Positions 45,608 to 58,473 of a DNA stretch of 64,000 nucleotides are shown piece after piece. Source of the stretch: Variovorax sp. PAMC26660 (GTDB taxonomy: Bacteria > Pseudomonadota > Gammaproteobacteria > Burkholderiales > Burkholderiaceae_C); contig NZ_CP060295.1 in assembly GCF_014302995.1 (NCBI RefSeq), positions 6,749,501 to 6,813,500 of the forward strand. The letters run 5' to 3'. Within the stretch, counting starts at the first letter, position 1, and each line of letters starts with the position of its first letter. The notes under the pieces were generated by a model. That model was not told the DNA's origin, did no database searches, and saw only the letters and a list, made by a program, of their open reading frames with translations. The position numbers and the translations under genes are program-made.

Positions 45608-48600
45608 ATGCATACCGTCGACCTGCTGGACAGCGCAACACCCCTTACCTCGGGTCAGATGGCGATGTGGCTCGGCGCCAGGTTCGCCTCGCCCGACACC
45701 AATTTCAACCTGGCCGAAGCCATCGAGATCGATGGTCCGGTCGACCCGGCCATCTTCCTGGCGTCCATGCGGCAAGTGGTCGAAGAGGCCGAGGCCACGC
45801 GGCTGCGTTTCGTCGATACCGAGCAAGGGCCGCGACAGATCGTGGCGTCGCCTTTCAGCCGCGAGATCCTCTACCTCGACTACAGCGAGAAGAGCGATCC
45901 CCGTGCCGAGGCAGAGACCTGGATGCACGCCGACTTCGGCCGCAACATCGATCTGGCGAACGGGCAGTTGTGGTTGTCCGCGCTGATTCGCTTGGCAGCC
46001 AATCGCCACATCTGGTACCACCGCAGCCATCACATCGTGCTTGACGGTTTCGGCGGCGGACTCATTGCACGACGCTTCGCGGACATCTACACCGCACGGG
46101 TCCAGCACACCGATGTTCCCGAAGCTTCGCGCTTCGCACCGATCGCACAGCTCGCCCACGAGGAGAACGCCTACCGCGAGTCCGGCCGCTTTCCGCGCGA
46201 CCGCCAGTACTGGATGGAGCGCTTCAGCGATGCGCCCGATCCGCTGAGCCTGGCGCAGCGGCGCTCGGTCAACGTCGGTGGCCTGCTGCGCCAGACCGTG
46301 CACCTGCCGGCCGCCAGCGTGCAGGCCTTGCAAGGCATTGCGCAGGAACTGGGCACCACGCTGCCGCAGATATTGATCGCCACCACCGCGGCCTACCTGT
46401 ACCGCGCCACCGGCATCGCCGACATGGTGATCGGCATCCCGGTGACTGCGCGCCACAACGACCAGATGCGGCGCGTGCCGGCCATGGTGGCGAATGCCTT
46501 GCCGCTGCGCCTTGCGATGAGCGCGCAGTTGCGCATCCCGGAGCTGATCCGCGAGGTCGGACGGCAGATGCGACAGATCCTGCGGCACCAGTCCTATCGC
46601 TACGAGTACCTGCGCAACGACCTGAACATGCTGGTGAACAACCGGCAGCTGTTCACGACCGTGGTCAACGTCGAACCCTTCGACTATGACCTGCGTTTTG
46701 CGGGGCACGCCGCGAAGCTGCGCAACCTGTCCAACGGCACTGCCGAGGACCTGGGCATCTTCCTGTACGAGCGCGGCAACGGGCAAGACCTGCAGATCGA
46801 CTTCGACGCCAATCCCGCGATCTACACCGCGCAGGCACTGGCCGATCATCAACGCCGGTTGCTGGCCTTCATCGCCGCTGTCATAGATGAGCCCGATCAA
46901 GCGGTCGGCCATGTCGATCTGCTGAGTACCGATGAGCGCCGGCAACTGCTGGTGGACTGGAACGACACCGGCCACGCAGTGCCCGACACCCACCTCACGG
47001 CATTGATCGAGGCACAGCTCGCAGGCAACCCGAGCGGCATTGCATTGCGCTTCGACGGACAGACGATGCGCAACGACGAACTGAACCGTCGCGCCAATCG
47101 GCTGGCCCACCTGCTGCGCGCACGCGGCGCGGGCCCGGAGCGCACCGTGGCGCTCGCCCTCCCCCGCTCGCTGGAGCTGATGGTGTCGTTGCTGGCTGTT
47201 CTGAAGACCGGCGCCGCCTATCTACCGGTCGATCCGGATTTCCCGCAGGACCGCATCGCCTTCATGCTCGGCGACGCGCAGCCGGTGTGCCTGATCACGA
47301 CTTCCGCCTTGTCGGAGGTACTGCCGGGCCATGCATCGCAATTGCTGCTCGACCTTCCGCAAACGATTGCCGAACTGGTGAGTTGTGCGGACACCAACCC
47401 CGGCGCTGCCATCGATCCCTCGCACCCGGCCTATGTGATCTACACCTCCGGCTCCACCGGCACGCCGAAGGGCGCGGTGGTGTCGCACCGCGCCATCGTC
47501 AATCGCCTGCGCTGGATGCAGGACCGCTACGGCCTGCAGGCCGACGACCGCGTGCTGCAGAAAACCCCTTCGAGCTTCGACGTGTCGGTCTGGGAATTCT
47601 TCTGGCCCCTGATCGACGGCGCGACGCTGGTGCTCGCAAAACCGGGCGGCCACAAGGACGCGGCCTACCTGGCCGACCTCATCGGCAGGGAAGGCATCAC
47701 CACACTGCACTTCGTGCCCTCGATGCTCGAAGTCTTCCTGCGCGAACCCGCGGCCGCCGCGTGCACGTCGCTGCGGCGGGTGATCTGCAGCGGCGAGGCT
47801 TTGTCGCCCGCGCTGCAATCGCAGTTCCAGCAACACCTGACCTGCGAACTGCACAACCTCTATGGTCCGACCGAAGCGGCGGTCGACGTCACCGCGTGGG
47901 AATGCCAGCGCGCACCCGAGATCGAGTCGACATCGGAGCGTGTTCCCATCGGCCGCCCGATCTGGAACACGCAGATGCATGTGCTCGACAGCGGCCTGCA
48001 GCTCGTGCCTCCGGGCGTGACGGGCGAGCTGTACATCGCCGGCGTCGGTCTGGCGCGCGGCTACCTGAACCGTCCGCTGCTCAGCGCCGAACGCTTCATC
48101 GCCAACCCCCACGGCGCGCCCGGCAGCCGCATGTACCGCACTGGCGACCTCGCGTGCTGGCGCCATGACGGCAGCCTCGACTTTCTCGGACGCGCCGACC
48201 AGCAGGTGAAGATCCGCGGCCTGCGCATCGAGCCGGGCGAGATCGAGTCGGTGCTGCTGCAGCACCCCCAAGTTGCACAGGCCGCGGTGATTGCGCGTGA
48301 AGACGTGGCCGGCGACAAGCGCCTCGTGGCCTATGTCGTTGCGGCGGATGCCAGCGATCCGCAGGCGTCCGAATTGCGCGCGCACCTGGCGCAGGCCCTG
48401 CCCGACTACATGGTGCCCTCGGCCTTCGTCAGCCTGCCGGCCCTGCCGCTCGGCCCGAGCGGCAAGCTCGATCGCAAGGCGCTGCCGGCGCCCGAGCAGC
48501 AAGCCGCCACGCCCTACGCCGCACCGCGCACGCCCACCGAAAAGATACTGGCCGGCCTCTGGGCCGAGACCTTGCACCTGCAGCGCGTCGGTGTCCACGA

Positions 48601-57181: not shown

Positions 57182-58473
57182 CGACCTCGACCCTTCAAGC
57201 GCCGCGCGCGCGCCGCGCTGCGCTCGCCTTCATCTTCGTGACCGTGCTGATCGACTTCCTGGCGTTCGGGTTGATCCTTCCCGGCCTGCCGCACCTGGTG
57301 GAGCGCCTGGCCGGCGGCAGCACCGCGACGGCGGCGTACTGGATCGCGGTGTTCGGCACGGCGTTCGCGGCGATCCAGTTCATCAGCGCGCCGATCCAGG
57401 GCGCGTTGTCCGATCGCTTCGGGCGGCGGCCGGTGATCCTGCTGTCGTGCCTGGGGTTGGGCGTGGACTTCGTGTTCATGGCCCTGGCCACCAGCTTGCC
57501 GTGGCTGTTCATCGGCCGCGTGGTGTCGGGTGTGTTCGCGGCCAGCTTCACCATCGCCAATGCCTACATCGCCGATGTGACGCCGCCAGACGAGCGCGCC
57601 AAGAGCTACGGCATCGTGGGCGCGGCCTTCGGCATGGGCCTGGTGATCGGGCCCGTGTTTGGCGGGCAACTGAGCCACATCGATCCGCGCTTGCCGTTCT
57701 GGTTCGCGGCCGGCCTGACCATGCTCAGCTTCTGCTACGGATGGTTCGTGCTGCCGGAATCGCTGCCGCCACAGCGGCGCGCCCGGAAGTTCGACTGGTC
57801 GCATGCCAACCCGGTCGGATCGCTGGTGCTGCTCAAGCGCTATCCGCAGGTGTTCGGGCTGGCGGCGGTGATCTTCCTCGTCAACCTCGCCCAGTACGTT
57901 TATCCCAGCGTGTTCGTGCTGTTCGCCGACTACCAGTACCACTGGAAGGAAGACACCGTGGGGTGGGTGCTCGGGCTGGTGGGCGTGCTCAGCGTGGGGG
58001 TCAACGCGCTGTTGATCGGGCCAGGCGTGAAGCGCTTCGGCGAGCGCCGTGCCCTGTTGTTCGGAATGGGTTTCGGCGTGCTCGGCTTCGTCATCTACGG
58101 CTTTGCCAATGCCGGCTGGATGCTTCTGGCCGCGCTGCCGTTCGGCACCTTGCTGGCGTTCGCTGGGCCGGCGGCACAGGCGCTGGTCACCGAGCAGGTC
58201 GATGCCGGTGAGCAGGGTCGCATTCAGGGCGCGCTGACGAGCCTGGTGTCAGTGGCAGGCATCGTCGGACCGGCGATGTTCGCCGGCAGCTTCGGCTATT
58301 TCATCGGCGCGGACACGCCGGTGCACTTGCCAGGCGCACCCTTTTTCCTCGCCGCGGTGTTCCTGGGCATCGGCACGCTGATCGCGTGGCGGTACACGCG
58401 GCGGAAGGTGACAGGGGCAGCGGTGGTGGCGCCGACGACCTGTCCAGCGCCCCCTCGCTGTCGCACGCGCTGA
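57178..58473 (+). CDS. MFS exporter of the TetA/DHA1 type
   Basis: A 431-residue major-facilitator transporter with twelve predicted helices. Motif A, GALSDRFGRRPVIL, sits in the first cytoplasmic loop. Also present are IFVTVLIDFLAFGLILPGLP in helix 1 and GPVFGGQL in helix 5. TetA-like DHA1 pumps export drugs by proton antiport. As the last gene of the NRPS operon (ATGA overlap with the GT2 gene) it most likely exports the glycopeptide and may give self-resistance. The final 25 residues are a hydrophilic extension of uncertain reality. Confidence 0.9.
   Translation: MTTSTLQAPRARRAALAFIFVTVLIDFLAFGLILPGLPHLVERLAGGSTATAAYWIAVFGTAFAAIQFISAPIQGALSDRFGRRPVILLSCLGLGVDFVFMALATSLPWLFIGRVVSGVFAASFTIANAYIADVTPPDERAKSYGIVGAAFGMGLVIGPVFGGQLSHIDPRLPFWFAAGLTMLSFCYGWFVLPESLPPQRRARKFDWSHANPVGSLVLLKRYPQVFGLAAVIFLVNLAQYVYPSVFVLFADYQYHWKEDTVGWVLGLVGVLSVGVNALLIGPGVKRFGERRALLFGMGFGVLGFVIYGFANAGWMLLAALPFGTLLAFAGPAAQALVTEQVDAGEQGRIQGALTSLVSVAGIVGPAMFAGSFGYFIGADTPVHLPGAPFFLAAVFLGIGTLIAWRYTRRKVTGAAVVAPTTCPAPPRCRTR

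What the first reader, a model, noticed from the sequence alone, without database searches (positions are those of the whole stretch)
45608..58473. Compact glyco-lipopeptide operon: Ser-X dipeptide NRPS with reductive release, two glycosyltransferases, an acyltransferase and an exporter
Seen: an intact C-A-T-C-A-T-R synthetase with a serine-type A1 code and hydrophobic A2 code, followed in tight linkage by GT1 (RhlB-like), MbtH, acyltransferase-3, GT2 (RhlC-like) and an MFS pump. Known: N-terminal C domains can start with a fatty acyl group, terminal R domains make aldehydes or alcohols, and RhlB/RhlC add rhamnose sequentially. Inferred: the product is an N-acyl-Ser-X-al/ol carrying one or two sugars, at least one acylated. 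The logic is a minimal analogue of mycobacterial glycopeptidolipids and I know of no described member in this bacterial family.
Basis: partly seen in the sequence, partly recalled or inferred. Interest (0 to 1): 0.85.

Follow-up and report, generated by a model that had tools for sequence, protein, structure and literature searches.

The report
Variovorax lipopeptide pathway with sugar-adding genes
A Variovorax bacterium carries genes that appear to join a fatty acid to a serine-containing dipeptide, release it by reduction, and add one or two sugars and an acyl group; in related species the add-on genes are sometimes missing or placed elsewhere, so the order of assembly can be guessed and tested.

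Summary
All six genes are there at the stated coordinates (45608-58473): an NRPS reading C-A-T-C-A-T-R, then GT1, MbtH, acyltransferase-3 (AT3), GT2 and an MFS transporter. The host is a Variovorax, judged by its nearest named relatives.

C1 groups with acyl-CoA-using starter C domains (100/100), and the residue that sets acyl length in RzmA (R148) is Gly or Ala in 23 of 23 C1 domains aligned, so a medium or long acyl chain is likely. A1 looks Ser-type, A2 hydrophobic.

New here: this is not one fixed operon. NRPS-R, GT1 and MbtH form a core in 25 of 101 genomes of the genus and in Acidovorax, Paracidovorax and one Collimonas. GT2-MFS (16 of 25 core genomes, 1 of 76 others) and AT3 (13 of 25, 0 of 76) are satellites, in the cluster or elsewhere. 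All 13 AT3 genomes also hold GT2 (one in broken form), which suggests that AT3 acts on the sugar that GT2 adds. Three of four Paracidovorax loci have a one-module C-A-T-R form.

Sugars, RhlB/RhlC labels, aldehyde or alcohol, and the product are unproven. No description was found in the open library; MIBiG and most subscription journals could not be searched.

The parts
45608..53095 (+). NRPS, 2495 aa, C1-A1-T1-C2-A2-T2-R
45608..46975 (+). C1, starter-type condensation domain (HHIVLDG; Gly at RzmA position 148)
47009..48466 (+). A1 adenylation domain, serine-type motifs
48548..48736 (+). T1 carrier domain
48791..50146 (+). C2, elongation (LCL-like) condensation domain, closest PDB 5u89
50165..51640 (+). 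A2 adenylation domain, hydrophobic-type motifs (limits approximate)
51923..53092 (+). R, NAD_binding_4 reductase part; closest PDB 8v1x and MxaA 4u7w
53104..54423 (+). GT1, UDPGT/MGT-type glycosyltransferase, 439 aa; core
54446..54670 (+). MbtH-like protein, 74 aa; core
54861..56135 (+). AT3, acyltransferase-3 family membrane protein, 424 aa; satellite
56132..57181 (+). GT2, family-2 glycosyltransferase resembling TIGR01556; satellite
57178..58473 (+). MFS transporter, always next to GT2; satellite
45300..45482 (+). Upstream region kept in Variovorax loci: palindrome GTTGC-N6-GCAAC (45301-45316) and CTTGTACATTG (45472-45482); possible control region

Best explanation
A glyco-lipopeptide pathway. 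Inferred steps: (1) C1 takes a medium or long fatty acyl group (perhaps 3-hydroxy) from primary metabolism and puts it on serine held by module 1; (2) C2 joins acyl-Ser to a hydrophobic residue; (3) R reduces and releases the chain as an aldehyde or, somewhat likelier, an amino alcohol; (4) GT1 adds the first sugar to a hydroxyl that one- and two-module forms share (acyl 3-OH, Ser side chain or terminal CH2OH); (5) GT2 adds a second sugar, plausibly L-rhamnose, and its paired MFS pump exports the product; (6) AT3 acylates the sugar that GT2 added. Shown: gene and domain content, starter type of C1, conservation, co-occurrence. Inferred: every chemical step and the order.
For: C1 best PDB match is the RzmA starter C domain, 313 bits, against 163 for EntF; C1 + RzmA-Cs + CdaPS1-Cs group 100/100 (9 of 23 C1 used). 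RzmA position 148 is Gly in 21 and Ala in 2 of 23 C1, position 138 Ser/Cys/Gly in 23 of 23; in RzmA, smaller residues at 148 move the product from C2 to C8-C10, and Y138A/M143A/R148G to C14-C16 (PMC7804268, passages). A1/A2 motifs constant in 22/18 domains. R resembles MxaA. R, GT1, MbtH together in 25 of 25 close matches in the genus. GT2 in 16 of 25 core genomes and 1 of 76 others; AT3 in 13 of 25 and 0 of 76; MFS in the same 17 genomes as GT2 and next to it in 17 of 17 by coordinates; all 13 AT3 genomes have GT2. Satellites lie on another contig or over 1 Mb from the core in 6 (GT2-MFS) and 4 (AT3) core genomes. In G474 GT2 is broken into two frames and AT3 is absent, while relatives G399, G417, G446, G451 have both. 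RmlC of the dTDP-rhamnose route present.
Against: No chemistry. In G494 (a metagenome-derived genome, 86% complete; its named copy appears to be L012) GT2 is also broken into two frames yet AT3 is present, so the G474 case does not stand alone as proof of dependence. Three unlinked GT2 matches (L069, L071, L073) contain one stop in the aligned stretch, place not examined. GT2 is below the rhamnosyltransferase cut-off, GT1 and MFS below every NCBIfam cut-off: sugars and cargo are guesses. P values ignore shared ancestry; on the core tree the GT2 states need 5 changes, of which starred branches force few. Unlinked satellites lack the upstream box of the NRPS. A-domain code positions are mapped from memory, and the PDB ranking of A1 does not single out a serine domain.
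Confidence: 0.6

Rival explanations
1. Rhamnolipid-like logic: GT1 and GT2 glycosylate the 3-hydroxy group of the acyl chain one after the other, as RhlB and RhlC do; the peptide is only a head group.
For: GT2 matches the whole TIGR01556 model (165.5 bits); RmlC in the genome; GT1 is kept whether the NRPS has one or two modules, which fits an acceptor on the acyl chain.
Against: GT2 below cut-off; RhlB not compared; no RhlA was identified (none was searched for; an unassigned alpha/beta hydrolase lies at 42145-43413); the acceptor could equally be Ser or the terminal alcohol.
Confidence: 0.35
2. Aryl-capped EntF/MxcG-type molecule: C1 loads 2,3-dihydroxybenzoate or the like.
For: Among named single-product models NCBIfam puts module 1 near MxcG (1560.5 bits) and EntF (1184.1 bits).
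Against: Both below cut-off (2300, 2400). C1 scores 313 bits to RzmA-Cs, 209 to CdaPS1-Cs, 198 to ObiF1, 163 to EntF; open gate in 23 of 23; no aryl-activating enzyme among the five genes after the NRPS; the rest of the genome was not searched for one.
Confidence: 0.07
3. The aldehyde is the active end: a peptide-aldehyde inhibitor whose sugars serve as self-protection or solubility tags.
For: Terminal R domain; GT1 weakly matches the self-immunity glycosyltransferase OleI model (57.1 of 700 bits); the MFS paired with GT2 is nearest to drug-efflux models.
Against: Close R domains include MxaA, which (recalled) makes a primary alcohol; no glycosidase among the six genes; the MFS is missing from 9 of 25 core genomes.
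Confidence: 0.2
4. GT2-MFS and AT3 belong to an unrelated envelope pathway and only travel with the NRPS core.
For: They lie elsewhere in 6 and 4 core genomes; in those four AT3 stands behind a core-genome RND operon; shared ancestry could inflate the association.
Against: 16 of 25 against 1 of 76, and 13 of 25 against 0 of 76, unlinked copies included; four-base overlaps tie AT3-GT2-MFS in the window.
Confidence: 0.15

Closest known systems
Mycobacterial glycopeptidolipids (mps1/mps2, gplH)
   Same: N-acylated NRPS peptide ending in an amino alcohol, MbtH-like partner required, variable glycosylation with O-acetylated sugars (PMC3537567, passages).
   Different: Tripeptide-alaninol with a C28-C35 acyl chain thought to need a PKS; here two residues, Ser first, a starter C domain, no PKS in the cluster, Gram-negative host.
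Serrawettin W1 synthetase SwrW
   Same: One C-A-T module for 3-hydroxydecanoyl-serine (PMC8880026, passages); near the one-module Paracidovorax form here.
   Different: SwrW ends in a thioesterase and the product is a dimer of two acyl-serines; here R and glycosylation.
Rhamnolipid operon rhlABC
   Same: One UDPGT-type and one family-2 glycosyltransferase (recalled).
   Different: Peptide head group made by an NRPS; rhamnosyltransferase cut-off not reached; RhlA not looked for.
Rhizomide/holrhizin starter C domains (RzmA-Cs, HolA-Cs)
   Same: C1 is in the clade of RzmA-Cs with an open form of the acyl gate.
   Different: No R domain or sugars described there in the passages read.
Acidobactin, vacidobactin, variobactin, variochelin
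   Same: NRPS products of Acidovorax and Variovorax (PMC4598715, passages; PMC10946135, passages).
   Different: NRPS-PKS hybrids by those papers; no PKS here.

Membership tests
Lipid starter (Cs) condensation domains | Clade with acyl-CoA-using starter C domains | tested here: met
   100/100 with RzmA-Cs and CdaPS1-Cs; 9 of 23 C1 rows used
Lipid starter (Cs) condensation domains | Small residue at RzmA 148 for longer acyl chains | tested here: met
   Gly 21, Ala 2 of 23; rule from PMC7804268
Lipid starter (Cs) condensation domains | Acyl-CoA plus aminoacyl condensation in vitro | not testable with these tools
   needs enzyme assay
Mycobacterial glycopeptidolipid pathway | NRPS for a tripeptide-alaninol core | tested here: not met
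   two modules
Mycobacterial glycopeptidolipid pathway | PKS for the acyl chain in the locus | tested here: not met
   none among the ORFs scanned between 33868 and 63359
Mycobacterial glycopeptidolipid pathway | MbtH partner, glycosyltransferases, acyltransferase | tested here: met
   same broad families; orthology not tested
Rhamnosyltransferase TIGR01556 (RhlC type) | Score above curated cut-off | tested here: not met
   165.5 of 200.55 bits
RhlB | Closer to RhlB than to other UDPGT proteins | not tested
   no RhlB sequence was fetched
Enterobactin EntF / myxochelin MxcG equivalogs | Score above curated cut-off | tested here: not met
   EntF 1184.1 of 2400; MxcG 1560.5 of 2300
NRPS terminal reductase (R) domains | NAD_binding_4 domain after the last T domain | tested here: met
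   190 bits; 8v1x and 4u7w best in PDB
NRPS terminal reductase (R) domains | Two- or four-electron product | not testable with these tools
   needs assay
SwrW serrawettin W1 synthetase | C-A-T-TE | tested here: not met
   R in place of TE

The most novel reading that the evidence does not exclude
A distributed glyco-lipopeptide pathway: an NRPS-R, GT1, MbtH core that exists in one-module (acyl-serinal/serinol) and two-module forms, completed by two separately moving satellites (GT2-MFS, then AT3) whose nested presence records the order of the chemistry; its products would be a Gram-negative counterpart of mycobacterial glycopeptidolipids.
Probability: 0.4. Interest if true: 0.66.

Novelty: new variant of a known kind. 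Interest (0 to 1): 0.52.

Why it matters
If right, soil- and plant-associated Variovorax and Paracidovorax make small sugar-decorated lipopeptides whose variants (one or two residues, one or two sugars, with or without acyl group) already exist side by side in nature. That gives a ready test of whether tailoring genes are gained in the order in which they act, of what each sugar and acyl group does for surface activity or protection, and of how a reductase-ending NRPS gains or loses a module. It is also a compact system with a predicted acyl gate.

Tried and rejected
Single fixed operon: rejected; AT3 and GT2-MFS are present or absent, and placed, independently of the core.

RND pump as part of the pathway: the TetR-OMF-MFP-RND operon behind the Paracidovorax cores L029, L031, L032 resembles the one before the unlinked Variovorax AT3 (RND 72-73% identical in L075-L077; in two pieces, 67 and 77%, in L078), which looked telling, but a match is in 92 of 101 genomes of the genus, with or without the core, so it is core genome and no evidence for the pathway. 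The window's RND operon 34030-40080 is a different one (27-31% to those).

Shared operator for unlinked satellites: not found in 10 of 10 loci. GT1 homologues at 33-45% (L006-L010, L061-L065) show no part of this NRPS in what was read; for 7 of these 10 only about 1.5 kb on each side was read, for 3 of them (L034-L036) 14.6-20 kb. Rfam: nothing at gathering level in 40000-64000. Sigma-70-like promoters: none found, 1.1 expected; terminator-like sites 12, 6.9 expected. The inverted repeats were taken as chance matches in coding DNA, without a test.

One-module forms: in L014 a frame break lies at the A1/A2 junction and the part after it resembles module 2 of L015, so it may be an assembly collapse; L026 is a draft contig; in L029 C1 is in two frames, broken near residue 83. 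L031 and L032 are the firm cases. L027, also a Paracidovorax, has two modules.

Literature: nine searches, (33 and 77 served other points). One search used two words recalled from memory (carenoxal, rhamnolipopeptide) that I could not confirm and that no held paper contains; a product of this family may be in print in a journal not held. PMC5583390 passages were read and bear nothing on this cluster. Structure prediction and fold search were not run. The tree holds no lipopeptide starter domains beyond the two printed by the PDB search.
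Full report
WHAT IS THERE. The NRPS ORF is 45608-53095 and Pfam gives C-A-T-C-A-T-R. Five genes follow on the same strand: GT1, MbtH, AT3, GT2, MFS. Flanking genes look unrelated: a PLD-domain gene (43446-45083, minus), an alpha/beta hydrolase and an AraC-type regulator upstream, and a TctC receptor gene downstream on the minus strand.

DOMAINS. 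C1 scored best against RzmA-Cs (313 bits), then CdaPS1-Cs (209), ObiF1 (198), EntF (163). C2 scored best against 5u89, DhbF (472 bits), and about 50 bits against RzmA-Cs. In a tree of 25 C domains (9 of 23 C1, 6 of 18 C2, 7 other C domains of the same genome, 3 from PDB) C1 plus the two PDB starters form a 100/100 group and C2 lies with DhbF; one other domain (own6023k) hangs next to the starter group with support 51/27, so its place is open. In RzmA one residue, R148, steers acyl length: smaller residues give longer chains, and Y138A/M143A/R148G reaches C14-C16 (PMC7804268, passages). My alignment puts Met at this position in CdaPS1, as the paper states (M165), which checks the register. The C1 domains have Gly (21) or Ala (2) there, and Ser (18), Cys (1) or Gly (4) at 138. 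This predicts a medium or long acyl donor. A1 reads FDVSVWEF, HFVPSM, (I/V)CSGE, NLYGPTEAAVDVT in 22 of 22 domains read; A2 reads FDAS(V/I)MD, SHALIPPAAL, VVGG, NAYGPTEITICA in 18 of 18. By positions recalled from the GrsA numbering A1 is D-V-W-H-I-S-L-V-D (V for I in L031 and L032), a serine code, and A2 is D-A-M-L-V-G-A-I-C, which I can only call hydrophobic. The PDB ranking of A1 does not itself tell the substrate. R is closest to 8v1x and to MxaA 4u7w; MxaA makes an alcohol (recalled), so an amino alcohol is somewhat likelier than an aldehyde.

HOW IT VARIES. GT1 was the tracer. At 83-100% identity it was found in 25 of 101 genomes of the genus (a 26th hit, G407, is 42% and not beside an R domain); in each of the 25 an R domain lies directly upstream and MbtH downstream. 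In a family sample 10 of 399 genomes matched, five of them closely and with R and MbtH; in a phylum sample 5 of 398, only the window's own closely. The 23 named loci are Variovorax, Acidovorax, Paracidovorax and one Collimonas silvisoli. Flanking gene families show several chromosomal sites. Of 22 NRPS read, 18 are dimodular; four are C-A-T-R (L026 Acidovorax; L029, L031, L032 Paracidovorax), and L014 (Variovorax CF313) looks monomodular with a frame break. L029 also has a frame break in C1. L027, a fourth Paracidovorax, is dimodular.

SATELLITES. Across the same 101 genomes GT2 occurs in 17, MFS in the same 17 and next to it by coordinates in each, AT3 in 13. Of 25 core genomes 16 have GT2-MFS (10 in the cluster, 6 elsewhere) and 13 have AT3 (9 in the cluster, 4 elsewhere); of the 76 others 1 has GT2-MFS (G415, 86% complete) and none has AT3. 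'Elsewhere' is over 1 Mb away in the two one-contig genomes (G481, G456), in the drafts on another contig. Fisher tests give 2e-11 and 6e-10, not corrected for ancestry. Six of the seven GT2 loci not beside a core (G415 included, G451 not fetched) and all four unlinked AT3 loci were read: GT2 is followed by MFS in 6 of 6, AT3 stands behind an RND operon in 4 of 4. All 13 AT3 genomes have GT2. In G474 GT2 is in two frames and AT3 is missing although G399, G417, G446 and G451 have both. Against this, in G494 GT2 is also in two frames (seen in L012 and L039) and AT3 is present; that genome is metagenome-derived and 86% complete, so either break may be a sequence error. On a tree of core sequences (R + GT1, 25 genomes and 2 outgroups) the three GT2 states need 5 changes and the three AT3 states 8: more than one event, but few.

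MECHANISM. The simplest reading is acyl loading by C1, Ser plus a hydrophobic residue, reductive release, sugar 1 by GT1, sugar 2 by GT2 with export by its paired MFS, then acylation by AT3 of what GT2 added, because AT3 was not found without GT2. GT1 is kept in one- and two-module forms, so its acceptor should be in the shared part: acyl 3-OH, Ser OH or terminal CH2OH. The dTDP-rhamnose route is represented by RmlC (only RmlC was searched). Every chemical step is inference.

COMPARISON. It works like mycobacterial glycopeptidolipids (N-acyl peptide amino alcohol, MbtH partner, sugars, O-acetyl groups; PMC3537567, passages) but fails membership (two modules, no PKS in the locus). Its one-module form resembles SwrW of serrawettin W1 (PMC8880026, passages) with R in place of TE. 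It differs from the Variovorax/Acidovorax products acidobactin, vacidobactin, variobactin (PMC4598715, passages) and variochelin (PMC10946135, passages). Searches listed no description of this cluster; I saw listings and the passages named, not whole papers.

VERDICT. The new part is the core-plus-satellite organisation with nested presence. Whether the compound itself is new is open.

Noticed in passing
window 45300-45482: Upstream of the NRPS a palindrome GTTGC-N6-GCAAC is exact in 14 of 16 Variovorax loci (window included) and has one change in 2; absent in Collimonas L019 and Paracidovorax L027. CTTGTACATTG (up to one change) recurs in 14 of 16. A single exact palindrome in the window is not rare by itself (14 of 100 shuffles had one).
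   Followed up: partly
window 54446-54670: The MbtH protein has Arg where 22 of 22 relatives aligned over that position have the third Trp that marks the family (five more alignments stop before it) (hallmark from PMC3537567).
   Followed up: no
L014:5652-9990: Variovorax sp. CF313 NRPS: A1 core joined to a module-2-like end with a frame break at the join; module loss by recombination, or assembly collapse of two similar stretches.
   Followed up: partly
L029:11757-18376; L075:8875-15443: The same core-genome RND operon type (TetR-OMF-MFP-RND) is the neighbour of Paracidovorax NRPS cores and of the unlinked Variovorax AT3.
   Followed up: partly
L075:6305-7501; L078:3903-5096: An alpha/beta hydrolase 34% identical to the one at window 42145-43413 lies next to unlinked AT3 in two loci.
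   Followed up: no
window 34030-40080: Another RND pump operon about 5.5 kb upstream of the NRPS, separated by AraC, hydrolase and PLD genes.
   Followed up: no
G000:C1:362636-381706 and 6020417-6024910: Two further NRPS regions with seven C domains in the same genome, none inside the starter group of the tree.
   Followed up: no
L019 (Collimonas silvisoli): Core with 83% identical GT1 in an Oxalobacteraceae genome; the core is 62.1% G+C, the 2.4 kb upstream 56.4%, which hints at transfer between families.
   Followed up: no
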